Source of the DNA: Candidatus Thiodiazotropha endoloripes
Lineage (GTDB): Bacteria; Pseudomonadota; Gammaproteobacteria; Chromatiales; Chromatiaceae
Length of the DNA: 64,000 nucleotides
Assembly (NCBI GenBank): GCA_001709035.1
Contig: LVKA01000008.1
Location: 1,054,001-1,118,000, forward strand
Direction of reading: 5' to 3'
Shown here: positions 13,902 to 30,023 of the stretch, piece after piece
How positions within the stretch are numbered: position 1 is the stretch's first letter
How the letters are laid out: each line of letters begins with the position of its first letter
Program-made: the position numbers and the translations under genes
The notes under the pieces: generated by a model
What the model saw: the letters and a program-made list of their open reading frames with translations, nothing else
Told to the model about the DNA's origin: nothing
The model's database searches: none

Positions 13902-14957
13902 ATGAAGAATTCTACCTATTTATCAGTCGGACTTCTGACGCTGGTTGTGATTTGGATGTTAAGTGGTGCCATGGCGAAAGTGACTGATCCTATTGTCACC
14001 GAAGCGCTCAGTTCCAAGCCGTTGATGCAGGTTCAGGTACTTGATATCAAAGCTGAGATGATCGATCGGGAGATCGTGGTGCAGGGTGAACTGATGCCGA
14101 ATCGCACCATTGAAGTGCGTGCTCAGACCACATCAAAGGTGGCTGAATTACCGGTTGAAAAAGGCCAAAGGGTTGACGCTCGACAGTCGATCGTTGAACT
14201 GGATGCTGAAGATCGCCATGCTCAGCTGAAGCGGGCTGAGGCAGCGGTGGATCACTTTAAACTCGAAGTGGCAGGGGCGCGTAAGCTTGAGCAGCGTGGA
14301 CTTCAGTCGGAGAATCAATTGAAATCGGCTCTTGCCTCACTGGCGGCCGCGGAGGCTGATCTGAAACGAGCCAGGCTGGAGTTGGACTATATCCAGATCA
14401 AGGCGCCATTCAGCGGTATTCTCGAACAGCGATTTGTGGAATTGGGCAGTCATCTGGAAAAGGGTGACAAAGTTGCATTGATCCTTGATGAATCGCTACT
14501 CAAAGCGGTTGGACTGGTCTCTCAACAGGCAGCGGGAAAACTGGCTGCGGGGCAGCTGATCAAAGTGCGGTTGCTGGACGGACAAGAGGCCGAAGGCAAT
14601 ATCACCTATATCTCCCAGCTCGGTGATTCAGAGACCCACAGCTTCCGGGTTGAAGCGGAGATTGATAACAAGGCTGGTCGACTCAATGCCGGTGTCAGTG
14701 CGGAGTTGAGAATCGTCATCGGCAAGGAACTGGCTCATTTCATTTCACCGGCCGTGCTTGCGTTGAATGACAGTGGCACAGTTGGTATCAAGAGTGTTGA
14801 TCAGGCCGGTTTGATCGCTTTTCATCCGATCGAATTCGTGCGTACCGAAGCGGATGGTATCTGGGTCTCCGGGTTGCCTGAATCTGTTCAGGTGATTTCT
14901 CAGGGACAGGGCTTCGTCAACGCGGGTGAAACCGTGATACCGGTTCCGGCATCATAA
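13902..14957 (+). CDS. RND efflux periplasmic adaptor subunit (HlyD/AcrA-like)
   Basis: 351 residues. An N-terminal hydrophobic segment (about 7-24) lacks a lipobox Cys, so the protein is probably an anchored or secreted adaptor. It is followed by a biotin-lipoyl half domain ('TSKVAELPVEKGQRVDARQSIVELD'), an alpha-hairpin (about 105-155), the second half ('LDYIQIKAPFSGILEQRFVELGSHLEKGD') and a beta-barrel. Adaptors of this type join the inner-membrane permease to a TolC-like channel. The stop overlaps the start of the permease gene (TAATGA), so the two are translationally coupled. No outer-membrane factor is encoded with the pair. Confidence 0.93.
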   Translation: MKNSTYLSVGLLTLVVIWMLSGAMAKVTDPIVTEALSSKPLMQVQVLDIKAEMIDREIVVQGELMPNRTIEVRAQTTSKVAELPVEKGQRVDARQSIVELDAEDRHAQLKRAEAAVDHFKLEVAGARKLEQRGLQSENQLKSALASLAAAEADLKRARLELDYIQIKAPFSGILEQRFVELGSHLEKGDKVALILDESLLKAVGLVSQQAAGKLAAGQLIKVRLLDGQEAEGNITYISQLGDSETHSFRVEAEIDNKAGRLNAGVSAELRIVIGKELAHFISPAVLALNDSGTVGIKSVDQAGLIAFHPIEFVRTEADGIWVSGLPESVQVISQGQGFVNAGETVIPVPAS

Positions 14958-17900
14958 TGAATACTCTGATCGATCTTGCCTTCTCCCGCAGTCGCGCGGT
15001 TCTACTCTCACTGCTGTTTATCCTTGTTGCTGGCGCCATGGCCTATAACGGGATACCAAAAGAGTCGGAACCCGATATTGCGGTACCCATCATCTACGTC
15101 TCAATGAGCCATGACGGTATTTCACCTGAAGATGCTGAAAGGTTGCTGGTCAGGCCGATGGAGAAAGAGCTGCAGTCCATCGCCGGTCTCAAAGAGATGA
15201 AGAGTACGGCAGGTGAAGGGCATGCTTCTGTGCAACTGGAGTTCAGCGCAGGTTTTGACAGTAAGCAGGCGTTGACCGATGTGCGTGAAAAGGTCGATAT
15301 CGCAAAAGTGAAGCTGCCGGATGCGACAGACGAGCCAGAAGTGGTAGAGGTGAATGTCGCTCTGTTTCCTGTCTTGACTGTCTCCCTCTCCGGTCCCATT
15401 CCGGAACGCAGTCTGGTGACTATCGCCAGGGATCTGCAGGATCGTATCGAGGCCCTGCCGGGGGTATTGGAAGCGGTGATTGGTGGCGATCGTGAAGCTG
15501 TGCTTGAGGTGATTGTCGATCCGGCGATCATGGAGACCTACGGGGTCGAATATGATGAATTGATTTCCATGGTGACAAGTAACAACCGACTGGTTGCCGC
15601 CGGGGCAATGGACACAGGTGCTGGTCGGTTGGTGCTCAAGGTGCCTGGTGTTATTGAAGAGCTGGATGATGTACTGCGCATGCCGGTTAAGGTGGATGGC
15701 GACCGGGTGATTACCTTTGGTGAAGTGGCGAGTATCCGACGCAGTTTCAAGGATCCAGAGAGTTTCGCCAGAGTGGATGGCCAGCCTGCCTTGACCCTAG
15801 AGGTCAAAAAGCGGGTTGGTGCCAATATCATCGATACCATCACTGAAGTCAGAAGCGTTGTCGAGGCTGAGCGCAAACATTGGCCAACCGGATTGAATGT
15901 CTCCTACATGCAGGATAAGTCGGATCAGATCAGAGAGATGCTCAGCGACCTGCAGAACAACATTCTCTCCGCCATCATTCTGGTGATGATTGTGATCATC
16001 GCGGCATTAGGGCCAAGATCGGCCGTTCTGGTCGGATTGGCAATACCCGGTTCATTCCTTGCAGCTATGCTGGTGCTCGACTCAATGGGCTTCACACTCA
16101 ATATCGTGGTGCTTTTCAGTCTGATTCTGGTGGTGGGTATGTTGGTAGACGGTGCCATCGTCGTGATTGAAATGGCTGACCGCAAAATGCAGCAGGGGAA
16201 TGCTCCCATGAATGCCTATGCGGCAGCGGCAAAACGCATGTCCTGGCCGATTACCGCATCCACCTTGACCACTCTGGCGGTATTCGCCCCATTGCTGTTC
16301 TGGCCGGGATTGGTAGGGGAGTTCATGAAGTATCTGCCGATCACGGTGATTATTGCCTTAACTGCATCGTTGGCCATGGCATTGGTGTTTGTACCTGTAC
16401 TGGGTGGCACGATCAGCCGGCGTGAGCAAACGACCGAAACAGTTGTGGAAGGAAGTTTCACTCAACGCTATGCAAAACTGTTGGCAAAGCTCCTGCATCA
16501 TCCGGGAAAGACTCTGGGAGTGGCATTGCTGGCGATGTTTATCGCCTACCTCTCCTATATGCAGTTTGGTAAGGGTATGGAGTTCTTTCCGGATGTGGAA
16601 CCGGAATTTGCTCAGATTCAGGTACATGCCCGTGGTGATCTCTCTGTTCATGAAAAGGATGCCATTGTGCGTCAGGTCGAACAGCGGGTATTGGATTTTC
16701 CCGAGCTTGATTCGGTCTATGCGCGCTCTTTCAATTCGGCCCAGGGGCAGAATATGGCAGAAGATGTTGTTGGTGTAATACAGCTTGAATTTATCGACTG
16801 GGATCAACGACGACCGGCGGCTGAAATTCTTGAAGAGATGCGTCAGCGCACACAAGATATTCCAGGTATTCAGATTGAATTTCGCAAAGCGGAGAATGGT
16901 CCATCCGGAGGTAAACCGATTCAGATCGAGCTCGGCAGTCGAGAGTTTAAACGGGTTGCCAAAGTGGTCTCCCAGTTGCGGGGACTGATGGCTGAACAGG
17001 GTGGCTACATTGACATTGAGGATGATCGACCGCTGCCCGGAATCGATTGGCGTCTTGAAGTCGATCGTGAACTTGCCGCCCGCTATGGCGCGAGTGTATC
17101 AATGCTGGGTAGTGCGGTACAGATGATCACCACCGGGATCAAGGTAACCGAGTACAGACCGGACGATACCGATGATGAAGTGGATATCAGAATACGCTTT
17201 CCCTACAGCGAGCGTAACCTGGGGCAACTGGATCAACTCAAGGTTTCCACCGTAAAAGGCATGGTCCCGATCAGTAATTTCGTCACCCTGCAACCTGCCG
17301 CGAAAAGCGGTAACCTGCGTCGGGTCGATGCACAACGGGTGATTACCATCCAGGCGGATGTGGAGGAAGGATTACTGCCGGACAACCAGCTGAAAGGGTT
17401 GCAGCAGCTGATTGCGGATGCTGATCCGGATGCCATGGTGAAGATCAGTTTCAAAGGTGAGGATGAAGATCAGCGGGAAGCCATGACCTTTCTCATGGGG
17501 GCCTTCATCAGCGCCATCTTTCTGATGGCATTGATCTTGGTGATTCAGTTTAATTCCATCTATCAGGCGTTTCTGGTGCTTTCCGCCATTGTGTTTTCAA
17601 CCGCAGGGGTTCTGCTCGGATTATTGATTACCGCTCAACCTTTCGGGGTGGTGATGGTCGGCTTGGGCATCATCGCTTTGGCCGGTATCGTGGTGAACAA
17701 CAATATTGTTCTGATCGATACCTATAACAGATTGCGCCGTGAGGGGTTGGACAGTTTCAATGCGGCACTGACAACCGGGCGTAGACGCTTGCGCCCGGTG
17801 TTTCTGACTGCATTCACCACGGTATTGGGACTGATGCCGATGGTGCTGGCAATGAATATCGACCTGATTCACCGCAGTATCAGCTTCGGTGCGCCATCCA

Positions 17901-18076
17901 CCCAGTGGTGGACGCAACTCGCCAGTGCCATTGCAGGAGGTCTCTCATTTGCAACGCTGCTGACACTGATTTTGACACCTTGTCTGTTGGTGTTGGGAGA
18001 GAGTGTTTCGGTCAGAGTCTCAGCAGGTATTGGAAAGCTGTCCGGTCGCCAGTTGGTGGAGCCCAAATCTCCATAG
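14957..18076 (+). CDS. RND efflux permease (AcrB/MdtB-type, HAE1 family)
   Basis: 1039 residues, standard length for a resistance-nodulation-division pump: 12 membrane helices and two large periplasmic loops. TM4 reads 'VGMLVDGAIVVIEM' and TM10 'LAGIVVNNNIVLIDTYNRLRREG'. The second Asp of the classic AcrB Asp pair is Gly here and the AcrB Lys is replaced within VNN, a combination common in the COG0841 branch distant from AcrB. It probably exports amphipathic compounds by proton antiport. Control is by the neighbouring TetR regulator. A TolC partner must come from elsewhere; the TolC-like protein 187 bp downstream belongs to a different operon by its domain content, but a shared channel cannot be excluded. 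Confidence 0.94.
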   Translation: MNTLIDLAFSRSRAVLLSLLFILVAGAMAYNGIPKESEPDIAVPIIYVSMSHDGISPEDAERLLVRPMEKELQSIAGLKEMKSTAGEGHASVQLEFSAGFDSKQALTDVREKVDIAKVKLPDATDEPEVVEVNVALFPVLTVSLSGPIPERSLVTIARDLQDRIEALPGVLEAVIGGDREAVLEVIVDPAIMETYGVEYDELISMVTSNNRLVAAGAMDTGAGRLVLKVPGVIEELDDVLRMPVKVDGDRVITFGEVASIRRSFKDPESFARVDGQPALTLEVKKRVGANIIDTITEVRSVVEAERKHWPTGLNVSYMQDKSDQIREMLSDLQNNILSAIILVMIVIIAALGPRSAVLVGLAIPGSFLAAMLVLDSMGFTLNIVVLFSLILVVGMLVDGAIVVIEMADRKMQQGNAPMNAYAAAAKRMSWPITASTLTTLAVFAPLLFWPGLVGEFMKYLPITVIIALTASLAMALVFVPVLGGTISRREQTTETVVEGSFTQRYAKLLAKLLHHPGKTLGVALLAMFIAYLSYMQFGKGMEFFPDVEPEFAQIQVHARGDLSVHEKDAIVRQVEQRVLDFPELDSVYARSFNSAQGQNMAEDVVGVIQLEFIDWDQRRPAAEILEEMRQRTQDIPGIQIEFRKAENGPSGGKPIQIELGSREFKRVAKVVSQLRGLMAEQGGYIDIEDDRPLPGIDWRLEVDRELAARYGASVSMLGSAVQMITTGIKVTEYRPDDTDDEVDIRIRFPYSERNLGQLDQLKVSTVKGMVPISNFVTLQPAAKSGNLRRVDAQRVITIQADVEEGLLPDNQLKGLQQLIADADPDAMVKISFKGEDEDQREAMTFLMGAFISAIFLMALILVIQFNSIYQAFLVLSAIVFSTAGVLLGLLITAQPFGVVMVGLGIIALAGIVVNNNIVLIDTYNRLRREGLDSFNAALTTGRRRLRPVFLTAFTTVLGLMPMVLAMNIDLIHRSISFGAPSTQWWTQLASAIAGGLSFATLLTLILTPCLLVLGESVSVRVSAGIGKLSGRQLVEPKSP

Positions 18077-18204
18077 CTGTCTCATTTATTAAGGAAGCCT
18101 TAGGGTCTGCTGGCATTGAATTCAGTTTATGGATCTTGATTGTCGTCAATGCCAAACTTTATCTTGCACAAAGATAAATTGGCAGTTAGTTTTCAAAAGT
18201 TTAC

Positions 18205-18232
18205 TTGACTCCAGATGTCAACAATCCATACT
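18205..18232 (+). promoter_or_regulatory. Putative sigma-70 promoter of the exopolysaccharide operon
   Basis: TTGACT (18205-18210) and CATACT (18227-18232) with a 16-bp spacer lie about 30 bp before the GTG start of the first gene. The -35 matches consensus at five of six positions and the -10 at four of six. No other convincing promoter was seen in the 187-bp spacer. Confidence 0.35.
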
Positions 18233-18263
18233 CTTGAAAACAACTGTATACCTAACTGTTTAA

Positions 18264-20333
18264 GTGAAACACTCTAGTCGTTTAAATCTTCTGTTTCTGT
18301 TGCTTCTTGGCCTGATATCCCCTCTGTTCTCAACTGCTGCTGAGCGGAACTCCACCGATTCAGAGGCTGTTAGCCTAACACCGAGTTCAGCTCCACCGGG
18401 AGATCAACAAGGCGAACACTACTGGCAATGGCTCTCTGAGCAGGCCGATCAGCTCGATCATTTGATTTCCCATCAAATGTCTGATCGTTCAACCAGAAAT
18501 CTCTTAAAAACGGATTGTGAAAGATCCCAATCGGTCAACTACCGACAACAGGCCCTGTTGAAAGAGGCTGATCTTTCACGCAAGGACCTGGGCCTCTATT
18601 TCGATGCCGGTGTACGGGATGAGTGGGATTCGGACTTCGAATCCGAAGACAGACAACGCGCCTACCTGGGCCTGACCTGGCGAGTGCTTGAGGATGGTTA
18701 TCGGGAAAAAAAGCATCGTGCCAATCTGGCAGAGACTAGAGCCGAGACTGAGGTTCTGCAAGCCAAACTCGATCTTCGCAAGGCCCTGGAGAACTGTCGC
18801 TACGACTCAACCAGAGACAGCTTTGCCCCTGTCTGGCTGCCGCTGCTGACGCTCAAGGAAAACTTTCTGGCAAAACTCTTCGCGATGCAGAAAGAGAGTT
18901 ATCTGATGGGTGGGCTCTATCTGGACGACCTGCTTGACAGCCAAAGAGAGCTGAAATCGATTCTGGAGCACTATCGAATGCTGCAGAATGGGCTGGATCG
19001 CCAGCTGGACGAAGTCGGACCCGGTATGCCGCCGTTGCTGGATATGGATATGGGTGAGATCAGACGGCGAATAACGGATGATCCGGAAAAGCAACGATTG
19101 GTCGAGTTGCAACATTCGATACTGGATGAACAAAGCGTTGCCAATGACGATAAACGATTGCGTTTCTACCTGCGTTACAACATTGATGAGGATCGTGATG
19201 AAAATGGAGCGACGGTCGGGGCTGCGTTTTCCATGCCGCTTGCCGGTGGTCGCTACTCCGAATCGGTGGTTGATCTCCACAAAAAGGAACTCGAACAGGA
19301 GCTGAAGGATGAGCAAAGGCGTCGGCTGAGACGGGCTGAGCTGGCCTATGGTGAGCTTTTGGAGCAGCGGGAACGGGTAGTGAAGCAGAACTATCGCTAC
19401 CTGGCTGCCTACGAACAGTTACGCCGGTCCATTGGGCGGCACCACTGGCTACCTCAGGAGGGTGGTTTCAAGTCCGCTGTAACCCAGATGACAACCTTGA
19501 TTGAAGGTGCGGTGGAGTTGATGCGTGCTGTGGAAGAGATGTATCGGCGGGTACATCGGGTGTTTGCCCGATCCGGGGTTGCCTACAGTACCGAACTGGT
19601 ACAGGCGACACCATTGAAGAACAGTTTTTACCGGGCCAGACGGGGCGAGCGCTCCATCTACATCTGGTCTGACAGCTTCATTAAGATGCCGAATGGCGTA
19701 ATTCAGGAGTTTTTGCGCGCCAAAGGTGTTTCAGAGGTTGTGTTGAGTGGGAATGCGAGGATACCCGAGCTGAAACTGATCGACTTTATGAACAATGCCC
19801 GGCAGCAGGGAATTGATATCCAGACCCTGGTAGGGGACAACGGTTGGCTGAAGCAATCCAGACAAAAAAGTCTACTGGACAGGCTCGAACAGTTAACTGA
19901 ACGCAGCGGTTATCTCCATATCGATGTGGAGCCCCATACATTGCCTGATTTCAAACAGAGCAGGCGCAACTATCTGGATCGATATCAGCAGCTGATCAGC
20001 GCCATTCAGCAACGTCTTGGTGAACAGGTCAAACTTGCTGTATCTGTGCCATTGCATTGGGATAGTGAGGATTATCAATATCTTGATCGTAATGTTGATC
20101 GAGTCTATCTCATGTCCTACGAAATCAACCGGGTTGAACATTTAAAACGTCGGCTCGCTAAAGTACTGCCCCATATGTCGGTGGCAAAAGTTGTGGTGGC
20201 ATTACGGCCTGAGGACTTCATGCATGAAGTTGAATTGGAATCCGTCATAGAAGAGCTCGCTTCAGCATTTGGAGTTGAGCAGTTCGCGCTACACGATCTC
20301 GACAGTTATCTGCAACTCAGTGATGGTCAATAG
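18264..20333 (+). CDS. TolC-like outer-membrane channel fused to a C-terminal TIM-barrel hydrolase-like domain
   Basis: 689 residues beginning at GTG. There is a signal peptide (about 1-26), then a TolC-like region (about 60-450) with two repeats, each a beta hairpin followed by long helices ('LGLYFDAGVRDEW...AYLGLTWRVLEDGYREKK' and 'RLRFYLRYNIDED...GAAFSMPLAGGRYSESV'). From R463 a second domain shows alternating strands and helices of a TIM barrel: SIYIWSD, VSEVVLSG, IQTLVGD, YLHIDVEP (D554, E556), VKLAVSVP, VYLMSYE (E620), KVVVALRPED, EQFALHDLDSY. Acidic residues end the strands where glycoside hydrolases keep their catalytic groups. It is first in a coupled operon with an adaptor, a GGDEF-like protein and a GT2 synthase, so it probably forms the export channel and trims the polymer. 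The hydrolase assignment is inference from pattern. Confidence 0.75.
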   Translation: MKHSSRLNLLFLLLLGLISPLFSTAAERNSTDSEAVSLTPSSAPPGDQQGEHYWQWLSEQADQLDHLISHQMSDRSTRNLLKTDCERSQSVNYRQQALLKEADLSRKDLGLYFDAGVRDEWDSDFESEDRQRAYLGLTWRVLEDGYREKKHRANLAETRAETEVLQAKLDLRKALENCRYDSTRDSFAPVWLPLLTLKENFLAKLFAMQKESYLMGGLYLDDLLDSQRELKSILEHYRMLQNGLDRQLDEVGPGMPPLLDMDMGEIRRRITDDPEKQRLVELQHSILDEQSVANDDKRLRFYLRYNIDEDRDENGATVGAAFSMPLAGGRYSESVVDLHKKELEQELKDEQRRRLRRAELAYGELLEQRERVVKQNYRYLAAYEQLRRSIGRHHWLPQEGGFKSAVTQMTTLIEGAVELMRAVEEMYRRVHRVFARSGVAYSTELVQATPLKNSFYRARRGERSIYIWSDSFIKMPNGVIQEFLRAKGVSEVVLSGNARIPELKLIDFMNNARQQGIDIQTLVGDNGWLKQSRQKSLLDRLEQLTERSGYLHIDVEPHTLPDFKQSRRNYLDRYQQLISAIQQRLGEQVKLAVSVPLHWDSEDYQYLDRNVDRVYLMSYEINRVEHLKRRLAKVLPHMSVAKVVVALRPEDFMHEVELESVIEELASAFGVEQFALHDLDSYLQLSDGQ

Positions 20334-21320
20334 ATGAGAATTAGAAACAAGAAAAGTTTTGTGGTTGTGGGGCCGGAGGGGCAGGCGCCCAAGTCGTTCT
20401 GGTCACGCCTGACGCATGGGCTCTACCTACTGTTTCTGACGCTACTGGCGGTCTATCTGATCTATTTCACTTTTACCCGTTTTACCCAGTTCAAAGTTGA
20501 TGGACAAGTGGCAGTTGAACGGGTTCGAGTCGCTGCGCTGCAGGGAGGACGAATCGCCACACTCACTGTAAAAGCGGGGGACAGGGTAGTTTCCGGGGAG
20601 CAGATCGTGGTGCTTGAAACCAACCAGCAGTGTGCAGCCAAATCCGATAAAGCGATCAGAAAACTCAGACAATCGATTGCTCTCGATAAGCAGAGATTGA
20701 AGGGCTTGAAGCTTCGCAGGGATAAGAGTGCAGCCAGAAAGCAGCAGTTAATCGATGAACGGCGTCTTGGCCGGGTATTGGAGCTGGAACGGCGTAAACA
20801 GACTGAGTCACAGACTCTGCAGAGAATTCTGGATGAGCTGGAAGTAGAGATCGAGATCCTTGCGCAGGAGATCGAGTTACAGCAACAAGAGCTGGAGCTG
20901 CAACTGAAAAGCCATAGTGAGGTTGAAGATTGTGGGTTTGAACGAATAGCCGCTCCGGTGGATGGACATGTAATTGCTGTCAATCATCATCTGTATGAGA
21001 TCGTCAACCGAAAAGAGACGATTCTGATCTTGATGCCTGAAACTCCGGAGATATGGGTCGATGCCTTTACCAGGGCGGATGATCAGTTGCCGGTATTGAC
21101 CGGGCAATCCGTGAATGTCAGGTTGCCTGACGGGAGCCTGAGCCCAGCAGAGGTTTCCAGCCTGAAGTCTGCCGCTGTTCCCTTTCCCGACAGAAAGTTT
21201 GATGACTACACGCCAAAAGAGAGTGCTTTGCACCTACGGGTCAAGCCTATCAACGGCGAAGAGGCAAAACGGTGGCTGGAATTCGACCGAATGGCAGTGA
21301 CTGTTGAGGGGGAAAGATGA
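20334..21320 (+). CDS. HlyD-like periplasmic adaptor of the exopolysaccharide operon
   Basis: 328 residues. A short cytoplasmic N-terminus and one membrane helix (about 25-47) precede a lipoyl half ('GGRIATLTVKAGDRVVSGEQIVVLE'), a long coiled coil (about 105-190, very rich in Glu/Gln/Lys/Leu) and the second lipoyl half ('FERIAAPVDGHVIAVNHHLYEIVNRKETILILMPE'). A short barrel part ('GQSVNVRLPDGS') follows. The order is that of HlyD/EmrA adaptors and of the periplasmic part of alginate Alg44. The ATG follows directly on the upstream stop, and the 3' end overlaps the next start by four bases. Most likely it links the inner-membrane synthase to the TolC-like channel. Confidence 0.85.
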   Translation: MRIRNKKSFVVVGPEGQAPKSFWSRLTHGLYLLFLTLLAVYLIYFTFTRFTQFKVDGQVAVERVRVAALQGGRIATLTVKAGDRVVSGEQIVVLETNQQCAAKSDKAIRKLRQSIALDKQRLKGLKLRRDKSAARKQQLIDERRLGRVLELERRKQTESQTLQRILDELEVEIEILAQEIELQQQELELQLKSHSEVEDCGFERIAAPVDGHVIAVNHHLYEIVNRKETILILMPETPEIWVDAFTRADDQLPVLTGQSVNVRLPDGSLSPAEVSSLKSAAVPFPDRKFDDYTPKESALHLRVKPINGEEAKRWLEFDRMAVTVEGER

Positions 21321-22732
21321 GCGAAGGACTATTGATTACAGGGGATCAGAACCCTCTTCATCTGCCTGCCAAGAAGTCGACAGATGATACTCTGTGGCGT
21401 AGTCTGGATGTCGGGGCAGATGCTGACTATTTTCTGTTCGAGGTTAGCAGTGAATCAGAAGCCTACAGGGTAATCGGATTAGTAAGGCAGAAATTGCTCC
21501 CGGCAATCTATCTAAAGCCATTGATTTTGATTAATAGTGGTGGGGATTTATCGAAATCGCTGCAGGATCAGGTCGATTTCGTGATCTCTTCTCAGCAATT
21601 GGAGCAACAGCTGCCTGCCAAGTTATTGGATGAGGTTGAGTCGATTAATCGACGTATTGATGCCCTTCAGGAGCAGCGATTAAAAGCGGATACCAATATG
21701 GCGCTGCGGGTCGTCCGCTATCTCTACAGTAGAGACAGAGAAGTGGAACCGGTAGCCTCGATTCAGAATCGCGGAGGTTATACTTTTACCGGTATCGAAA
21801 GCTTGTTCGACGGTCATGATCAAAGCATCTGGCAAACCCTTGATTTTCTTAACTCACAACATCTGGTTCAGACGCGCTTTGTAACCCGCACACACCAGTG
21901 TGCGAGCTGTGGCTGTGCGTTCCTCAATTTCAAAGAGACCTGCCCCCAATGTGAGTCGGAAGAGCTCGATGCGGATGATCTGATACATCACTTCCGTTGT
22001 GGCTATACGGCGGAACTGTCAGACTTCAGGCAAGAGGAGCGGCTGGTCTGTCCCAAGTGTGATCAGACCTTGAGACATATCGGCGTCGACTATGACAAGC
22101 CCTCGATGATGTATCACTGCAGGAGTTGTGACCATCGATTCCAGGAGCCTGAAATTGCGACGACCTGCTTTGACTGTCATCGTACTGCACCACCCGAAAA
22201 TCAGATTCATCGCAATATCGAAGCGTATAAACTCAGTATGCTCGGTGTCAACGCAGCACTCTATGGGCTGGATTCGCTTTTTGCATCGATTCTAGAACGC
22301 AGACTTCAGTTGTTGCCACTGGATGTGTTCGAACGCTTTATCGCTGTCGAAAAGGCGAGGATCGGACGGTATAAGGTTTCCCACTCAAGTCTGCTGTTAA
22401 TCGATATTAAAGGTTTGGAGCAGATCTATCTTACGCTGGGAGAGAGAACCAGTGAGGTTTATGAAGAGCTGGCCAATCTGTTTTATGCCATGTTGCGCAG
22501 TTCCGATCTGATCAGTAGTCGCAATGAGTCCCTGTTTCTGATGCTGCTGACAGAGACTTCACCTGACGATGCAAAGATCGTCGAGGGACGGCTGAGTAGT
22601 GGTGTAGGGGAGTTGCTCAAGGCCAGCCTGGGAGCCAGTCCGGATATTATCTCACAAATCGTCAATGTGGATACCGCTCTGGATTTGACCGCTTATCTGG
22701 AATCATTTTTAAGCGAACATCATGCTGAATGA
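21317..22732 (+). CDS. Zinc-ribbon (TackOD1-like) protein with degenerate GGDEF domain keeping a c-di-GMP I-site
   Basis: 471 residues, soluble. Residues 1-110 resemble a receiver-like fold without clear phosphorylation residues. Residues ~140-310 carry a series of Cys pairs (C195/C198, then CPQC, CPKC, CRSC, CFDC) as in the TackOD1 metal-binding domain. Residues ~330-465 align with GGDEF domains, but the catalytic motif reads NESLF (403-407). The inhibitory-site motif RSSD (394-397) is kept at its exact spacing from it. Loss of GGDEF with retention of RxxD is the hallmark of c-di-GMP receptors such as PelD. The gene overlaps both neighbours (4 and 11 bp), so it probably switches the adjacent GT2 synthase on by binding c-di-GMP. 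Confidence 0.78.
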   Translation: MSEGLLITGDQNPLHLPAKKSTDDTLWRSLDVGADADYFLFEVSSESEAYRVIGLVRQKLLPAIYLKPLILINSGGDLSKSLQDQVDFVISSQQLEQQLPAKLLDEVESINRRIDALQEQRLKADTNMALRVVRYLYSRDREVEPVASIQNRGGYTFTGIESLFDGHDQSIWQTLDFLNSQHLVQTRFVTRTHQCASCGCAFLNFKETCPQCESEELDADDLIHHFRCGYTAELSDFRQEERLVCPKCDQTLRHIGVDYDKPSMMYHCRSCDHRFQEPEIATTCFDCHRTAPPENQIHRNIEAYKLSMLGVNAALYGLDSLFASILERRLQLLPLDVFERFIAVEKARIGRYKVSHSSLLLIDIKGLEQIYLTLGERTSEVYEELANLFYAMLRSSDLISSRNESLFLMLLTETSPDDAKIVEGRLSSGVGELLKASLGASPDIISQIVNVDTALDLTAYLESFLSEHHAE

Positions 22733-24026
22733 TACCTGGGACTTCATTACAGGACTGAGTGCGGCACAGCTGGTCAGTTACTTCTGGCCCTTCTTTCTTT
22801 TCGATTTGACCCGATACGTGGTATTTGATGTTCTTATCCTGACTCTTTATCTGCCAAGACGTAAACGAAATAAACAACGTCGTGCTGAAGCCAGGAGACT
22901 GCTTTTTCACGAGAAGCCACTGGTTTCGGTTATCGTTCCAGGAAAGAATGAAGGTAAACACATTCCAAGTCTTGCAGAATCGTTGACCCGCCAAACCTAT
23001 AAAAAGCTTGAAATCGTGATTGTCGATGATGGTTCCGACGATGATACAGAGATTATTTGTCGGAAGCTGCATAAGGATGGCAAGATCGATCAATATGTGC
23101 GCAATGAAGTGCGGGGCGGAAAAGCATCTGCGGCAAACACTGCGCTCTATTACTCAACTGGTAAGTATGTCATCCATCTCGATGCGGACTCAGAGCTTCG
23201 TTACGATTCGATTGAAACCATCCTGTTACCGTTTTACATGGATGCCAACATAGCTGCTGTGGGCGGTGATATCCGGGTTGCCAATCTCAATCAAACCATG
23301 GCAACCCGAACTCAGGCAATCGAGTATTTCAAAGGTATTTCCACCGGACGGACCGTATCCTCGATGCTTGGTATTCTGCGTATCATTGCTGGTGCCTATG
23401 GTGCGTTTCGTCGGGATACGCTGGATCGACTCGGAGGTTGGGATGTGGGACCGGGTCTGGATGGTGATATCACCATGAAGATCCGCAAGCTTGGCCTGAA
23501 GGTCGTCCATGAACCGCATGCTGTCTGTTACACCAATGTGCCCACGAGTTTTCGAAAACTGGCCCGGCAGCGATTTCGCTGGGACAGATCGATGGTGCGT
23601 TTTCGCGCCCGTAAGCATGTCGACGTTTTGATGCCGACATCGAATTTCAGGTTGAGTAATTTCATCGCAACGGTGGAGAACCTCTTTTACAATCTGTTCC
23701 TGAATTTCAAGTGGTGGTTCTATGTGGCGCAGGTGATCTTCTTTTACGGTGCTTTATTGCAACATATCATTGTGGTGAACTACGTGCTTTATACTTTGGC
23801 CAACCTGGCCGAGTTTCTGGTGGCCATGGTGCTGTTGCGAAAAACCCTGCGTAAGCAGGATCTGCTGTTGATTCTCTACCTGCCGTTGATGCCGCTCTAT
23901 ACCGGCCTCTATCTGCGTATCGTAAGAACCTATGCCTACATCATGGAGTTCATACACAAAGCCTCCTATGCAGACCGGTGGAATCCATGGAAGGTTTCCC
24001 GAGTTGTCAAAAAAGACCGCTTATAG
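22722..24026 (+). CDS. Processive family 2 glycosyltransferase (exopolysaccharide synthase)
   Basis: 434 residues. An N-terminal membrane segment (about 20-45) precedes a GT-A domain with the processive GT2 motifs: VDDGSDD (D102, D103), LDADSE (D154, D156), LDGD in place of TED (D247, D249) and QRFRW (283-287). The C-terminus has three to four membrane helices (about 310-410). This is the layout of cellulose, hyaluronan and poly-GlcNAc synthases, which polymerise a nucleotide sugar and thread the chain through the inner membrane. There is no PilZ domain, so c-di-GMP control would have to come from the upstream degenerate GGDEF protein. The sugar is not readable from sequence. Last gene of the operon. 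Confidence 0.9.
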   Translation: MLNDTWDFITGLSAAQLVSYFWPFFLFDLTRYVVFDVLILTLYLPRRKRNKQRRAEARRLLFHEKPLVSVIVPGKNEGKHIPSLAESLTRQTYKKLEIVIVDDGSDDDTEIICRKLHKDGKIDQYVRNEVRGGKASAANTALYYSTGKYVIHLDADSELRYDSIETILLPFYMDANIAAVGGDIRVANLNQTMATRTQAIEYFKGISTGRTVSSMLGILRIIAGAYGAFRRDTLDRLGGWDVGPGLDGDITMKIRKLGLKVVHEPHAVCYTNVPTSFRKLARQRFRWDRSMVRFRARKHVDVLMPTSNFRLSNFIATVENLFYNLFLNFKWWFYVAQVIFFYGALLQHIIVVNYVLYTLANLAEFLVAMVLLRKTLRKQDLLLILYLPLMPLYTGLYLRIVRTYAYIMEFIHKASYADRWNPWKVSRVVKKDRL

Positions 24027-24072
24027 TTTGCATCGAGCAACGCTTGTTTGTTGCTGGCAATAACCGGTTGTT

Positions 24073-25008
24073 TTACATTTCCTGAAAATATTGCGTCATC
24101 TTTTGCCGCGTCTTCGCATCGGGAAGGGCTCCATGGCAGGCGCCCATGTTGTCCACCATATGATGGGTCTTACTGGTGGCCGGGATTGCACAGGTGATCG
24201 CTGGGTGAGAGACGATGTATTTGAGGAAAAACTGCCCCCAACTGTGGCAATCGAACGCCTTGGCCCACTCGGGCAGACTTTTCCCTCTGGTCTTCCTGAA
24301 GAGCGCACCCCGGGCATAGGGGCGATTGGCAAGCACAGCGATATTGCGCTCCTGAGCCAGTGGCAACAGGCGTTGCTCCACCTCCCGGTCGACGATGTTG
24401 TAGCTCAGTTGAACGAAGTCGAACTTGTGATGCTTCAATGCCTGGTAGAGTTCATCGTGGTCCCGACCATGGGAGGTGGTAATACCGATGTAGCGAATGT
24501 TCCCGGCCGCTTTCATTGCTTTCAGTGTCTCCAGGTGGACCTGCCAATCCACCAGGTTGTGAATCTGCATCAGGTCGAATTGCGCTACCCCCCAAAGCTT
24601 GCGGGAGTTTTCCATCTGTCGGATGCCTGAATCCTTGCCACTGGTCCATACTTTTGTTGCAGTGAACAGCTCAGGATTTTTTGTGTCCGTCTTGAGTAAC
24701 TGACCGAGTACCGCTTCGGAGTTGCCGTACATGGGTGAGGAGTCGATCAAACTCCCCCCATTGGTGAAAAATAAATTCAGCACTTTGGCAAGGTTTTCCA
24801 GTTGGCTTGGATCGCCCACTGAATCGAATGTCCGGGAAGTACCCATACCGATTACCGGCAGCAACTCGCCACTGGCAGGGATTGGTTTCTTTATGATCGT
24901 GGTTGGCTTGGCAAATAACCGGCTGGAGGGAAACAGCAGACAACCACCAATACTGGCGAGGCTTTTCAATAGAGTGCGTCTGTTTAACTGGATATCGGTT
25001 TTTTTCAT
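24073..25008 (-). CDS. Tat-exported aldo/keto reductase
   Basis: About 311 residues. The N-terminus has a twin-arginine signal ('LNRRTLLKSLASIGG'), so the enzyme is exported folded, presumably with NADP(H) or another cofactor bound. The aldo/keto reductase barrel shows 'GGSLIDSSPMYGNSE' (catalytic Asp/Tyr), the Lys in 'FTATKVW' and the His in 'DLMQIHNLVDW', completing the usual tetrad. The start at 25008 follows the stop of the upstream transporter by one base. An in-frame ATG at 25047 would lengthen the n-region. Exported reductases of this kind occur in several gammaproteobacteria; the substrate is unknown. Confidence 0.9.
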   Translation of the reverse strand: MKKTDIQLNRRTLLKSLASIGGCLLFPSSRLFAKPTTIIKKPIPASGELLPVIGMGTSRTFDSVGDPSQLENLAKVLNLFFTNGGSLIDSSPMYGNSEAVLGQLLKTDTKNPELFTATKVWTSGKDSGIRQMENSRKLWGVAQFDLMQIHNLVDWQVHLETLKAMKAAGNIRYIGITTSHGRDHDELYQALKHHKFDFVQLSYNIVDREVEQRLLPLAQERNIAVLANRPYARGALFRKTRGKSLPEWAKAFDCHSWGQFFLKYIVSHPAITCAIPATSKTHHMVDNMGACHGALPDAKTRQKMTQYFQEM

Positions 25009-25009
25009 C

Positions 25010-26344
25010 TCACTCGTCTCCATTCTGAGAATTGGGTTGAGTTGCAATCCGGTTCTGCTGTTGACCGAGCCTGTATGCCACCCAGGCCCAGATCAGGGAG
25101 ATCGGGGCAGCGATCCAGGCTATCGTTGGGAGACTCATGCCAAGTGTGCGGAATCCTGTATAGACCCAGGAGCTGACTGCATCACCTCCGCGGTAGACAA
25201 CCGTATCGATGAAGTTCTTTGCTTTATATTTTTCATCCCGATTGAGTACCACATAGAGCATCTCCCTGGATGGCCGCATGACGGCGTAATTACCTGCTCG
25301 TCTCAATACCTGGACACCAATCAAAACAGGAAGTGCCGGGAAGAGGGCCAGCAGAACGAAGCCAAAACAGAGCAGCAGCGGGATCAATGCCAGCACCAGT
25401 GCCAGGCCAAACCCCTTTATCAGGCGAGCGGTGATGAAGGTTTGAAGGAACAGGGTGAGCGCATTCACGGAAAGATCGATGGTTGCAAACAGGGCAGTAC
25501 GTGCTTCGGAATCGGCAACGGCAAGCTTGATGATCTGTGCCTGTTGGAAATAGAGAAAGGTGGAGAGCAGGGTGAACAGCAGCATCAGAACACAGATTCC
25601 CATCAGGTAGGGGGAGCGTAGAACCAGCAGGATGCCATCCCAGATGCTTCCGCCAATCGGTTTCTCAATCCCTTCATCTGACCTGTCACTCTGCTCCTGC
25701 CGGTCACTGCTTGTGGCCTGCCACCGGATCAACCGGTTAATGCATAGAATCGACAGGCAGAGCAATCCGGCGGAAATCAGCATCATCTGACTGGTACCCA
25801 GCTGCTGTACGAGCGTCGCAGTCAAAAGCGGGCCGGTCAATGCTCCCACGGTTCCCCCACTGGCAATCAAACCGAACAGGCGTTTTGCCTGTTCGTTCCG
25901 GTATAGATCGGTCATGAAGCTCCAAAAGACAGAGACCACAAACAGGTTGAAGACACTTAGCCAGATGAAAAAAACACGGGCGACATTTGTCAGGGAATCG
26001 GCCGATTCGAATATCAGATAGAAAAGTATCAGATTGATAACAAAAAAGAGATAGACATAGGGCAGAAACCGCTTTCGCTGCAATCTTGAGGTGATAAAGC
26101 CAAACAGCGGTACCACCAGTAACATGGCGATGAAGGTGCCTGTGAATAACCATTGCAGTTGATCGATACCAGCAATGATGCCCATTTCATCGCGAATTGG
26201 TCTAAGCACATAATAGCTGCTCAGAATTGAAAAGAAATAGAGAAACGACCAGGCGACAGCACGACCCTCACCGGGATGAACCGACGCCAGGCGTCGTAGC
26301 ATGGCCTGCCATACAGGGAACAGAGTTTTCATGCCGTTGTTCAT
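25010..26344 (-). CDS. NTP/NDP exchange-type transporter (Tlc-like MFS protein)
   Basis: 444 residues with 11-12 hydrophobic segments. 'SSYYVLRPIRDEMGI' in the first part and 'FWSFMTDLYRNEQAKRLFGLIASGGTVGALTGP' in the middle are signatures of the bacterial ATP:ADP antiporter-like family. Classical members import nucleotides in Rickettsia and Chlamydia. Many free-living proteobacteria carry this shorter branch with unknown substrate, so nucleotide transport should not be assumed. It is the first gene of a two-gene unit with the Tat-exported reductase, suggesting a linked envelope function. Confidence 0.83.
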   Translation of the reverse strand: MNNGMKTLFPVWQAMLRRLASVHPGEGRAVAWSFLYFFSILSSYYVLRPIRDEMGIIAGIDQLQWLFTGTFIAMLLVVPLFGFITSRLQRKRFLPYVYLFFVINLILFYLIFESADSLTNVARVFFIWLSVFNLFVVSVFWSFMTDLYRNEQAKRLFGLIASGGTVGALTGPLLTATLVQQLGTSQMMLISAGLLCLSILCINRLIRWQATSSDRQEQSDRSDEGIEKPIGGSIWDGILLVLRSPYLMGICVLMLLFTLLSTFLYFQQAQIIKLAVADSEARTALFATIDLSVNALTLFLQTFITARLIKGFGLALVLALIPLLLCFGFVLLALFPALPVLIGVQVLRRAGNYAVMRPSREMLYVVLNRDEKYKAKNFIDTVVYRGGDAVSSWVYTGFRTLGMSLPTIAWIAAPISLIWAWVAYRLGQQQNRIATQPNSQNGDE

Positions 26345-27356: not shown

Positions 27357-27374
27357 ATGGTTGGGATGAGAGCT

Positions 27375-30023
27375 ATGAACAGATTGTCTTTCCAGATGTT
27401 GTCAATAGTGGTTTTGGTTTTGCTATCAAACAGTGTGGCTATTGGTGCGGACTTTAAAATCGAGAAGGCGCTATGGAAAGTAGAAAAGTCCCTGTTGATC
27501 GTCAAGGCTACCGCCGACAAAGGGCAGAGATTGCGCATCGAAAACGCCTATGACTCAGCTCAGGTGCTCAAAGAGTCGAAGTTGAGAAAGGAGACTCTTA
27601 CTACCAGAGTTCGCTCACCGGAGCAGCTTCCCTGTCGGATCCGGGTTGTAAATGTAACCACGGGTAGAGAGTTGGAGCAGGATGTCAAGAGCAGTAACAC
27701 GGAACAGATTCCGCAAGGCTGCTATCCAACCGGCCCTTCAGAACCACCAGTCAATAAAGCACCAGTCGCAGATGCCGGTATCGATCAGTTGCATCAACTG
27801 CAAGCCGGGCAAACCAGCATAAAGGTTACCCTGGATGGCAGCGGTTCAACCGACCCGGATGGTAAAGTTACCGACTTTATCTGGACAGGTTCACCTGATC
27901 CTGCCGATGTGGTATCTCCATCAATTACGCTAAGCGAAGGTACGCATAAACTCAGTTTGGTCGTGGTAGATGATCAAGGTGAATCAAGCGTATCCGACCG
28001 TGTTCTGATTACTGTGGAAGCAGCTCCCGTCGAACCGCCAGCGGACAATGAAGTACCTGTCGCGGATGCGGGTGCTGACCAGACTCATCAACTGAAGGTC
28101 GGTCAGAGCAGCATGACATTCAACCTTGACGGCAGTGGCTCAATGGATCCGGATGGTTCTGTAGCCAGCTATCGATGGGATGGTTCACCCAACCCTGCAG
28201 ATAAGGCTTCTCCAAGTGTTTCACTTTCTGAAGGCAGCTATGAATTCACCCTGATGGTTACTGATGATCAAGGTGCAATGAGTGTCTCTGACACTGTATG
28301 GATTACTGTCAATGCCGCAACTACAGAGCCACCTCAGACTGCTGCAGAGGCCCATGCCAGCATCGTTATCTATGAAGGCCCATCAACCTGCATCAGCTGT
28401 CATGAAGACCAGGCGGTAGCCATGCACGGTTCCGTGCACTATCAACAGTCAGGGGATACCATCAATCTGACCAATGATGTGACTCCATTCAGCAGCAGTG
28501 GCCTTCCCCGCGCCGGTGAGCGTGGTGATGGTGCAATCGGTATCAACACCTATTGTGGCTCTCACTTGAACTCGCCCCGTTTTACCTGTGCGGGCTGCCA
28601 TGTGGGTAACGGTCGATTCCCCAATTCGGAACTGCCTTTGGACAAGACTGAACGCCAGGCTGAATTGAGCAATATCGACTGTCTGATGTGTCATCAGGAT
28701 AGTTACAAACGCTTCCCGAATGGTGACTTCGAGCCTCTGGAAATTGTTGAAATGGGTGCGGATGGTAAGCCTGATCCAAGCCTGCCACCAATCGTAAGGA
28801 CCGGCTCCCAGGGTATCCCTGTGGTCGATCCAGTCACTCTCGATTTCGAGTTCGAGCCGGCCGATGCCAACAGTACCCTGGTAGACCTGGGTGGATCACC
28901 GATGATGCAGGATCGCGTGTCTGCAGCACAATCTGTACACGCAACCACCAGAAAGTCCTGTCTCAGCTGCCATGCCAAAGCGGGTGGCGGCGATGGTACC
29001 AAGCGTGGTGATCTGTCATCCGCTCTGATCGATCCCGCTCCAAGCATCGATATTCATATGAGTTCAAGCGGTGAGAACCTCTCATGTGCCGATTGCCATG
29101 ATGCGGGCGGACACCGTGTGAAAGGGCGTGGTCTTGATCTCAGACCTAATGATGTCGCTGAGCACTTTACCTGTGAAAGCTGCCATGACAAGCCACATGG
29201 TGACTACAGCAACCGTAATGGCGGCAGCCGCGATAAGCATGCCACCCGGGTTGCCTGTCAGACTTGCCATATTCCAACCTATGCCAAGGGCGTGCCTACT
29301 GAAACCAATCGTGACTGGGAAGACCCACACTTCTCAGCAGCAGCCTGTAACGGTCGCGGTGGTTGGTTGCCAAGAGAGGATAAGGCCCTCAACCTGACAC
29401 CGACCTACCATTGGTTCGACGGCACCAGTCAGGTCTATGTGCTGGGTGAAGATCTGGCGGACTACCCGGTAACTGTATTGGAAGACGGCAGTGATGCGAT
29501 AACACTGGGTCAACCGAATGGCTGGGTCAATACGCAGAACGCCAAGATCTATCCAATGAAGGAGCATACCTCTAAGTCTGCTGTGCATGATGCAAGCAAC
29601 AGTCTGATTGCCCATTCAACCTTTGAGTTCTTCCGCACCGGCAGCTTCGATACCGCTGTACAGAGCGCACTGGAACAGACAGGGCAGTCAGGTGACAGCT
29701 ATAGCGTGAAGAAGGTACATACCTTCCAGACCCTCAACCACGGCGTGGAAGACTCCTCTGCAGCACTTGAGTGTGGCGCATGTCATGCGAGTCTGAGTGG
29801 TGGGCCTTTACGCATGGATCTGGCCAATGATCTTGGCTATGGCATGAAAGGCAATGAAGCTGAGGTCTGCACCCAGTGCCATGAGAACAAAGGCAGCATG
29901 AGTTTCACCAAAGTACATGAAAAGCATGTCAAGGATAAGGGCATCGATTGCTCCACATGCCATGAGTTCAGCAGACCAGAACGTGGCTTGAATGCAAATG
30001 TTGCCAAGTTTGTAGAGGACTAA
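27375..30023 (+). CDS. PKD-domain decahaem cytochrome c related to octahaem tetrathionate reductase
   Basis: About 882 residues (ATGs at 27357 and 27366 are also in frame). A signal peptide is followed by a ~90-residue N-domain, then two PKD domains ('PVADAGIDQLHQL...LDGSGSTDPDGKV' and 'PVADAGADQTHQL...LDGSGSMDPDGSV'). The haem region has ten CXXCH motifs: CISCH, CAGCH, CLMCH, CLSCH, CADCH, CESCH, CQTCH, CGACH, CTQCH, CSTCH. The stretch 'CLSCHAKAGGGDGTKRGDLSSAL...CADCH...GHRVKGRGLDL' closely follows octahaem tetrathionate reductase (OTR). OTR reduces tetrathionate, nitrite and hydroxylamine in vitro. Two extra haems and PKD modules are not usual, so this is probably a surface or periplasmic variant. 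A terminator follows. Confidence 0.85.
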   Translation: MNRLSFQMLSIVVLVLLSNSVAIGADFKIEKALWKVEKSLLIVKATADKGQRLRIENAYDSAQVLKESKLRKETLTTRVRSPEQLPCRIRVVNVTTGRELEQDVKSSNTEQIPQGCYPTGPSEPPVNKAPVADAGIDQLHQLQAGQTSIKVTLDGSGSTDPDGKVTDFIWTGSPDPADVVSPSITLSEGTHKLSLVVVDDQGESSVSDRVLITVEAAPVEPPADNEVPVADAGADQTHQLKVGQSSMTFNLDGSGSMDPDGSVASYRWDGSPNPADKASPSVSLSEGSYEFTLMVTDDQGAMSVSDTVWITVNAATTEPPQTAAEAHASIVIYEGPSTCISCHEDQAVAMHGSVHYQQSGDTINLTNDVTPFSSSGLPRAGERGDGAIGINTYCGSHLNSPRFTCAGCHVGNGRFPNSELPLDKTERQAELSNIDCLMCHQDSYKRFPNGDFEPLEIVEMGADGKPDPSLPPIVRTGSQGIPVVDPVTLDFEFEPADANSTLVDLGGSPMMQDRVSAAQSVHATTRKSCLSCHAKAGGGDGTKRGDLSSALIDPAPSIDIHMSSSGENLSCADCHDAGGHRVKGRGLDLRPNDVAEHFTCESCHDKPHGDYSNRNGGSRDKHATRVACQTCHIPTYAKGVPTETNRDWEDPHFSAAACNGRGGWLPREDKALNLTPTYHWFDGTSQVYVLGEDLADYPVTVLEDGSDAITLGQPNGWVNTQNAKIYPMKEHTSKSAVHDASNSLIAHSTFEFFRTGSFDTAVQSALEQTGQSGDSYSVKKVHTFQTLNHGVEDSSAALECGACHASLSGGPLRMDLANDLGYGMKGNEAEVCTQCHENKGSMSFTKVHEKHVKDKGIDCSTCHEFSRPERGLNANVAKFVED

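What the first reader, a model, noticed from the sequence alone, without database searches (positions are those of the whole stretch)
18264..24026. Undescribed-looking c-di-GMP-controlled exopolysaccharide synthesis and export operon
Four overlapping or abutting genes encode a TolC-like channel fused to a TIM barrel, a HlyD-like adaptor, a zinc-ribbon protein with a degenerate GGDEF domain and a processive GT2 synthase. Known systems combine these parts differently: Pel uses PelD with GT4, Alg44 joins PilZ to an adaptor, and Bcs/Pga use BcsA/PgaC with beta-barrel porins. Here a tripartite tunnel like that of drug pumps appears to export a GT2-made polymer, with c-di-GMP sensed by a separate protein. 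There is no PilZ, TPR or deacetylase gene. Function is inferred from domains and gene order.
Basis: partly seen in the sequence, partly recalled or inferred. Interest (0 to 1): 0.88.

Follow-up and report, generated by a model that had tools for sequence, protein, structure and literature searches.

The report
c-di-GMP-linked sugar-polymer synthesis and export operon
Four neighbouring genes in a clam-symbiont-like bacterium appear to build a sugar polymer in the inner membrane, push it out through a drug-pump-like tunnel with a built-in sugar-cutting domain, and switch this on with the signal molecule c-di-GMP; related gene sets recur in other bacteria.

Summary
Window 18264-24026 has four tightly packed + strand genes in a Candidatus Thiodiazotropha-like genome: a TolC-like protein fused to a TIM barrel, an HlyD-like adaptor, a TackOD1 zinc-ribbon protein with a degenerate GGDEF domain, and a processive PgaC-like GT2.

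It is a recurring module. Of 36 TackOD1 loci examined, 33 have GT2 and HlyD genes adjacent; 16 also have the channel/TIM gene. The gene order seen here forms one supported group in a GT2 tree, spanning at least two classes.

c-di-GMP sensing is inferred: in 119 aligned relatives (window included) the I-site residues R394, D397, R425 are invariant and no GGDEF motif remains; nearest precedents are BcsE and PelD. The TIM barrel has a GH18/PgaB-type fold with invariant acids after strand 4, so I predict a GlcNAc-containing polymer. The TolC assignment is only moderate: sensitive profile comparison supports it, ordinary family searches miss it.

I found no description of this gene set in the library searched. 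Nothing was tested at the bench. Verdict: a new variant of synthase-dependent exopolysaccharide secretion.

The parts
18264..20333 (+). P1: hydrophobic N-terminus (likely signal peptide), TolC-like channel region (about residues 55-450), then GH18/PgaB-like TIM barrel (about 460-689)
19923..19931 (+). D554-x-E556 of P1, just after barrel strand 4: predicted catalytic acids
   Evidence: Invariant in 12 of 12 sequences aligned; strand 4 is residues 550-553 in the model. The comparison with GH18 motifs is from recall.
20334..21320 (+). P2: HlyD-like periplasmic adaptor with one N-terminal hydrophobic helix (25-51)
   Evidence: PF13437 5.6e-9, over cut-off; hydropathy; weak solved matches to a Lipase C adaptor (5nen, E 0.0015) and a MacA (4dk0, E 0.0034).
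21317..22732 (+). P3: receiver-like N-terminus, TackOD1 zinc ribbons (124-306), degenerate GGDEF (about 323-471); predicted c-di-GMP sensor
22496..22591 (+). I-site of P3: R394-x-x-D397 ... R425
   Evidence: R394, D397 and R425 invariant in 119 of 119 aligned sequences, window included; no GG[DE]EF-like motif in 119. In a wider set of 32 loci, 31 with letters here: R394 30, D397 31, R425 R in 22 and K in 6.
22722..24026 (+). P4: processive GT2 polysaccharide synthase, PgaC-like, with hydrophobic segments at 24-44 and within 333-401
   Evidence: TIGR03937 PgaC_IcaA 147.7 bits over residues 42-375, below its 422.3 cut-off; D103, D154, D156, D247 and Q283-R-x-R-W287 invariant in 32 of 32 loci aligned (the frame-broken L042 was left out).

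Best explanation
The operon encodes a synthase-dependent exopolysaccharide system. The inner-membrane GT2 (P4) polymerises a sugar, most likely GlcNAc-containing, and extrudes it. The HlyD-like adaptor (P2) and the TolC-like P1 form one sealed duct across periplasm and outer membrane. The GH18/PgaB-like domain at the C-terminus of P1, which in TolC topology (recalled) lies in the periplasm, trims or clears polymer at the duct. P3 is a cytoplasmic co-factor whose dead GGDEF domain binds c-di-GMP at its I-site and activates or assembles the synthase, as PelD and BcsE do. Shown here: gene anatomy, recurrence as a module, motif conservation, GGDEF and TIM folds in models. Inferred: the TolC-like duct (moderate), c-di-GMP binding, the activation step, polymer identity, hydrolase activity.
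For: Module conservation: 33 of 36 TackOD1 loci have adjacent GT2 and HlyD genes and 16 of 36 the channel/TIM gene. GT2 catalytic residues invariant in 32 of 32 loci aligned. I-site R394/D397/R425 invariant in 119 of 119 with the cyclase motif lost in all 119. P3 has no hydrophobic segment. GGDEF fold. TIM fold GH18/PgaB with D554, E556, M617, Y619 invariant in 12 of 12. TolC-repeat match of both halves by hhalign. Channel/TIM proteins of the other gene order score 36-56 bits on PF02321 (cut-off 22) in 4 of 4 scanned. Host genome has 92 GGDEF matches, P3's own among them.
Against: The AlphaFold model of the P1 channel region failed (pLDDT mostly under 50). PF02321 does not hit P1 or the 5 other layout A proteins scanned. 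hmmsearch with a profile of 29 TolC-family rows hits neither P1 nor any of its relatives at E 1e-3 (it also misses the layout B proteins that PF02321 finds). A profile of the channel region found no solved structure. The hhalign probabilities are 72-87, not conclusive, and the two halves do not match each other (E 0.067). The channel parts of the two gene orders match only weakly (E 0.016-0.29), although their TIM parts match at 2.4e-11. 15 of 36 loci have no channel match nearby, so a duct there would need another TolC. The Foldseek list for the barrel also holds non-glycosidase TIM barrels at similar E. No experiment shows c-di-GMP binding or a polymer. Confidence lowered from 0.72 to 0.70.
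Confidence: 0.7

Rival explanations
1. P1 is the outer-membrane factor of the RND pump encoded just upstream, and the GT2 pair is a separate, merely neighbouring unit.
For: An adaptor-like ORF (13902-14957; HlyD-profile match) and an RND gene (14957-18076, ACR_tran 1.7e-166) lie immediately upstream, and the RND gene is also beside P1 in L029 and L031.
Against: tblastn with the RND protein against 18 loci that have or may have the channel gene finds it only in the window, L029 and L031; none in L032, L033, L036, L038, L040-L042, L071, L075, L077, L079 and L083-L085 within the fetched flanks, and L030 starts too close to tell. In layout B the channel gene lies downstream of GT2.
Confidence: 0.08
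2. P4 makes a lipid-linked or short oligosaccharide, and the tripartite duct exports a glycolipid or small glycoconjugate rather than a long polymer.
For: Other GT2 families such as HpnI also match weakly (43.5 bits); HlyD/TolC ducts usually move small molecules or proteins (general knowledge).
Against: Best curated match is the polymer synthase PgaC/IcaA (147.7 bits, below cut-off) and the Q-R-x-R-W motif of processive enzymes is invariant in 32 of 32 loci aligned. A GH18/PgaB-like domain fits an N-acetylhexosamine polymer.
Confidence: 0.13
3. P3 is not a c-di-GMP sensor: the RxxD residues are structural and TackOD1 is the working part, for example a metal- or redox-responsive scaffold for the synthase.
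For: TackOD1 Cys and His residues are as invariant as the I-site (11 Cys and H224 in 119 of 119); the function of TackOD1 is called obscure (PMC5847659, passages). In the wider set R394 is His in 1 of 31, and R425 is D, E or G in 3 of 31.
Against: In 11 diverse sequences the only invariant residues of the GGDEF region are F338, R394 and D397, while positions of the GGDEF motif vary freely.
Confidence: 0.15

Closest known systems
XcsAB-TolC, cyanobacterial cellulose export (proposed by Maeda 2018, not read; as reviewed in PMC12430437, passages)
   Same: GT2 synthase + HlyD-like adaptor + TolC-type channel proposed as tripartite polysaccharide exporter; c-di-GMP controlled; a glycanase is part of the set
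   Different: PilZ sits inside the synthase; the genes are scattered in T. vulcanus; endoglucanase separate; no TackOD1/GGDEF protein in the passages read
BgsBA mixed-linkage glucan, Sinorhizobium/Rhizobium (PMC9495663, passages)
   Same: HlyD-like protein encoded next to a c-di-GMP-activated GT2
   Different: c-di-GMP bound by the C-terminus of the synthase; cellulose-synthase-like GT2; putative two-gene operon
BcsE of E. coli-type Bcs (PMC7439463, passages)
   Same: Degenerate receiver-GGDEF tandem that binds c-di-GMP at an RxxD I-site and supports a GT2 synthase
   Different: No TackOD1 described in the passages; Bcs also has PilZ in BcsA; its BcsB and beta-barrel porin are recalled
Pel / PelD (PMC8461298, passages)
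   Same: Separate degenerate GGDEF sensor with RxxD, no PilZ; a further Arg (R402) needed for binding
   Different: PelD has transmembrane helices and GAF; synthase is GT4 PelF with PelE and PelG; Pel outer-membrane parts not compared here
Pga/PNAG (PgaABCD; system recalled)
   Same: Nearest GT2 by curated model (PgaC) and nearest TIM barrel by Foldseek (PgaB)
   Different: No deacetylase, PgaD or TPR porin among the four genes; PgaC model cut-off not reached
NfrB/NfrA of E. coli (PMC8669469, passages)
   Same: Dedicated c-di-GMP-controlled GT2 with processive motifs and an outer-membrane partner
   Different: Sensor is an MshEN domain fused to the synthase; NfrA is a TPR protein with a predicted outer-membrane pore; no HlyD/TolC in the passages

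Membership tests
Synthase-dependent exopolysaccharide secretion systems | Membrane processive GT with D, DxD, D, Q(Q/R)xRW and TM segments | tested here: met
   Motif residues invariant in 32 of 32 loci aligned; hydrophobic segments at 24-44 and within 333-401. In the third motif D247 is kept but the preceding residue is not E as in TED (sequence).
Synthase-dependent exopolysaccharide secretion systems | c-di-GMP receptor encoded with the synthase | tested here: inconclusive
   I-site residues invariant in 119 of 119, but binding not measured.
Synthase-dependent exopolysaccharide secretion systems | Makes a secreted polysaccharide | not testable with these tools
   Needs expression and chemistry.
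TolC / outer membrane efflux protein (PF02321) | Match to the family over its cut-off | tested here: not met
   No PF02321 match on P1 or 5 other layout A proteins; 4 of 4 layout B proteins match at 36-56 bits. P1 may work like a TolC; it is not filed as a PF02321 member.
TolC / outer membrane efflux protein (PF02321) | Two tandem repeats of the TolC kind | tested here: inconclusive
   Each half aligns to the same TolC repeat by hhalign, E 4e-6 and 3.5e-5, well above controls, but the halves do not match each other (E 0.067), hmmsearch fails and the model is poor.
HlyD-type periplasmic adaptor | N-terminal TM, lipoyl and beta-barrel regions | tested here: met
   PF13437 over cut-off; HlyD_D23 and Biotin_lipoyl_2 match below cut-off; hydrophobic helix 25-51.
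TackOD1 (PF18551) | 11 conserved Cys with a conserved His | tested here: met
   11 Cys and H224 invariant in 119 of 119; definition from PMC5847659 (passages).
Active diguanylate cyclase | GG(D/E)EF motif | tested here: not met
   Absent in all of 119 and in all of 32 loci.
XcsAB-TolC | PilZ domain in the GT2 (the variant proposed for export) | tested here: not met
   No PilZ listed for P4.
Pel system | GT4 synthase PelF with PelE and PelG | tested here: not met
   The synthase is GT2 and no such domain is among the four proteins.
Pga system | PgaC at curated cut-off, with PgaB deacetylase | tested here: not met
   147.7 against 422.3 bits; no deacetylase domain in the four proteins.
GH18 / PgaB-type glycosidase | TIM fold of that type | tested here: met
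   Foldseek best hit PgaB; the VIA top rows are nearly all chitinase-type.
GH18 / PgaB-type glycosidase | Catalytic acids placed as in GH18, with activity | tested here: inconclusive
   D554/E556 invariant in 12 of 12 just after strand 4; no residue-level superposition, no Pfam GH match, activity not tested.
BcsE | Receiver-GGDEF tandem with I-site | tested here: inconclusive
   VIA rows against PleD and DgcR align model residues 1-471 or 2-471 but with large rmsd (5.7-18); BcsE is not among the rows shown.

The most novel reading that the evidence does not exclude
A distinct, widespread class of c-di-GMP-gated polysaccharide secretion: GT2 + HlyD with TackOD1-GGDEF* as the constant regulator, and in some branches a complete operon-encoded TolC-type tripartite duct whose channel carries its own glycosidase. 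It would give TackOD1, whose function is called obscure, an assignment as an adaptor that couples c-di-GMP to a sugar polymer synthase.
Probability: 0.57. Interest if true: 0.8.

Novelty: new variant of a known kind. Interest (0 to 1): 0.7.

Why it matters
The XcsAB-TolC model of tripartite polysaccharide export is said to lack experimental validation, and its parts are not encoded in one operon (PMC12430437, passages). Here all parts lie in one operon, so the idea becomes directly testable. A channel-glycosidase fusion would tie the periplasmic hydrolase to the exit duct, a job that other systems give to separate proteins (recalled for BcsZ, PelA, PgaB). The 33-of-36 linkage gives a working hypothesis for a zinc-ribbon domain of unknown function. 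In a clam symbiont such a polymer could matter for colonisation, which is speculation.

Tried and rejected
Active diguanylate cyclase for P3: rejected, GGDEF motif absent in 119 of 119. Channel as part of the upstream RND pump: rejected as main reading, linkage not conserved. First profile comparison of P1 relatives with five own-genome OEP loci failed (Prob 1.1, E 0.02): two of the five extracted ORFs (L003, L006) were plainly too short and L007 was not checked. It was repeated with 29 OEP rows of 380-560 aa from 31 loci tried, some of them the same protein twice, and with more P1 relatives. Internal repeat test, N half against C half: not significant (E 0.067). hmmsearch with a profile of those 29 rows: no P1 relative at E 1e-3, only an ordinary OEP in the flank of L084. 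RLS-type TolC-binding motif in the adaptor (recalled): a match in 8 of 28 adaptors, at differing places, so not conserved. Protein searches with P1 alone and with a 9-sequence alignment found the same 10 relatives, 54-94% identical, so the wider spread of P1 was seen only through TackOD1 loci. Profile search of the channel region against solved structures: no match. TIM profile: best solved match is a putative GH97 from Cellulomonas fimi, 10yv_A, E 1.2e-7. Mirror-tree correlations of GT2, TackOD1 and HlyD distances are high (r 0.88-0.95 against at most 0.43 in 2000 permutations), but shared host ancestry alone could give this, so they are not used. Promoter-like sites in 17900-24400: 4 against a shuffle mean of 6.0; terminator-like 12 against 5.8, most of them inside genes. 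Rfam over 17500-24500: none. VIA lists for P1 and P3 are filled by one domain each and say little about the channel region or the TackOD1 fold. Rows dropped before counts: L042 and L035 left out of the 32-locus sets; 3 of the 120 listed TackOD1 proteins left out of the 119-row alignment as short, and 26 of 146 were never listed. TackOD1 matches below the family cut-off were not followed: 6 genomes and 3.
Full report
What is there. The window lies in a 4.87 Mb genome whose nearest named relatives are Candidatus Thiodiazotropha and a symbiont of Stewartia floridana. Four + strand ORFs fill 18264-24026 with a 0-base gap and 4- and 11-base overlaps, which looks like a translationally coupled operon. 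The same four genes in the same order are intact in L029, L030 and L031 at 89-99% protein identity.

P2 and P4. P2 is an HlyD-type adaptor. P4 is a GT2 whose best curated model is PgaC/IcaA, well below cut-off. Its D103, D154, D156, D247 and Q283-R-x-R-W are invariant in 32 of 32 loci aligned, with hydrophobic segments at both ends. The next-best own-genome match is 23% identical.

Recurrence. TackOD1 was sought in 274 genomes of the class, 195 of the order and 398 of the phylum: over cut-off in 14, 8 and 15, the own genome being in each. Those loci plus L032 give 36 distinct loci once repeats are removed (L068-L070 repeat L030, L029 and L031). Contexts were read with Pfam for part of the genes and with profiles built from some of the loci themselves, so partly circular for those. 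Adjacent GT2 and HlyD genes: 33 of 36; two of the 33 (L032, L083) show only part of HlyD at a contig end, and in L042 the genes are broken by frame changes. Without the cassette: L035, and L123 and L124, whose TackOD1 matches are fragments on short contigs. Channel/TIM gene: 16 of 36. Layouts: A, channel-HlyD-TackOD1-GT2 (11: window, L029-L031, L040-L042, L071, L079, L084, L085); B, TackOD1-GT2-channel-HlyD (5: L033, L036, L038 with channel and barrel split, L075, L077); C, TackOD1-GT2-HlyD (15), with no match to my channel, barrel or TolC profiles in flanks of 1.2-7.6 kb (the TolC profile is narrow). L032 and L083 fit A but are cut. In a GT2 tree the 10 layout A rows usable there form one side of a branch with 100/99 support and include two loci from outside the class. 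The module is patchy near home: 3 same-genus genomes besides the own one have a TackOD1 match and at least 18 listed ones have none.

How it most likely works. c-di-GMP, for which the host has many candidate enzymes (92 GGDEF matches), binds P3; P3 then activates or assembles P4. P4 extrudes a polymer into the P2-P1 duct, and the periplasmic barrel domain trims it or clears stalled chains. The PgaC-like synthase and PgaB/GH18-like barrel point to an N-acetylhexosamine polymer. Layout C may borrow a general TolC. Steps beyond gene anatomy, motif conservation and modelled folds are inference.

What is known. TackOD1 appears in one paper of the library, where its function is called obscure (PMC5847659, passages). 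Searches for the combination showed no description of this gene set in titles or abstract openings; most listed papers were not opened, and most subscription papers are not held. The nearest precedents are XcsAB-TolC, BgsBA, BcsE, PelD, Pga and Nfr (see Closest known systems). By working principle the closest is XcsAB-TolC; by sensor, BcsE/PelD; by synthase and barrel, Pga. For XcsAB-TolC, Pel and Pga a defining feature was tested and not met; for BcsE the test was inconclusive.

Verdict. Real, conserved and plausible, not validated; a new variant of a known kind, with TackOD1's link to polymer synthesis as the most surprising part.

Noticed in passing
window 13902-18076: An adaptor-like ORF and a large RND pump gene (ACR_tran 1.7e-166) lie just upstream of the operon; the RND gene is beside it also in L029 and L031 but in none of the other loci tested.
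   Followed up: yes
window 25010-26344, - strand: An MFS-like protein that also matches the TLC ATP/ADP transporter family (PF03219, 43.3 bits over a 21 cut-off), a family best known from intracellular bacteria and plastids (recalled).
   Followed up: no
L036:10932-13442: Layout B channel protein that also carries an N-terminal AMIN domain: AMIN-TolC-TIM in one chain.
   Followed up: no
L042:4400-9500: Layout A cassette interrupted by several frame changes, either assembly errors or decayed genes; described only.
   Followed up: partly
L035:6624-8015: A full-length TackOD1-GGDEF* protein beside PhoB/PhoR-like and phosphate-transport-like genes, without GT2 or HlyD.
   Followed up: no
window 27357-30023: 888 aa protein with many CxxCH haem-binding motifs and PKD-like repeats by eye (translation); no domain search was run.
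   Followed up: no
P1 barrel (window 19626-20330) against 10yv_A: The P1-type barrels share sequence with a solved protein called putative GH97 from Cellulomonas fimi (E 1.2e-7), including the stretch that holds D554 and E556; a possible lead to barrel specificity.
   Followed up: no
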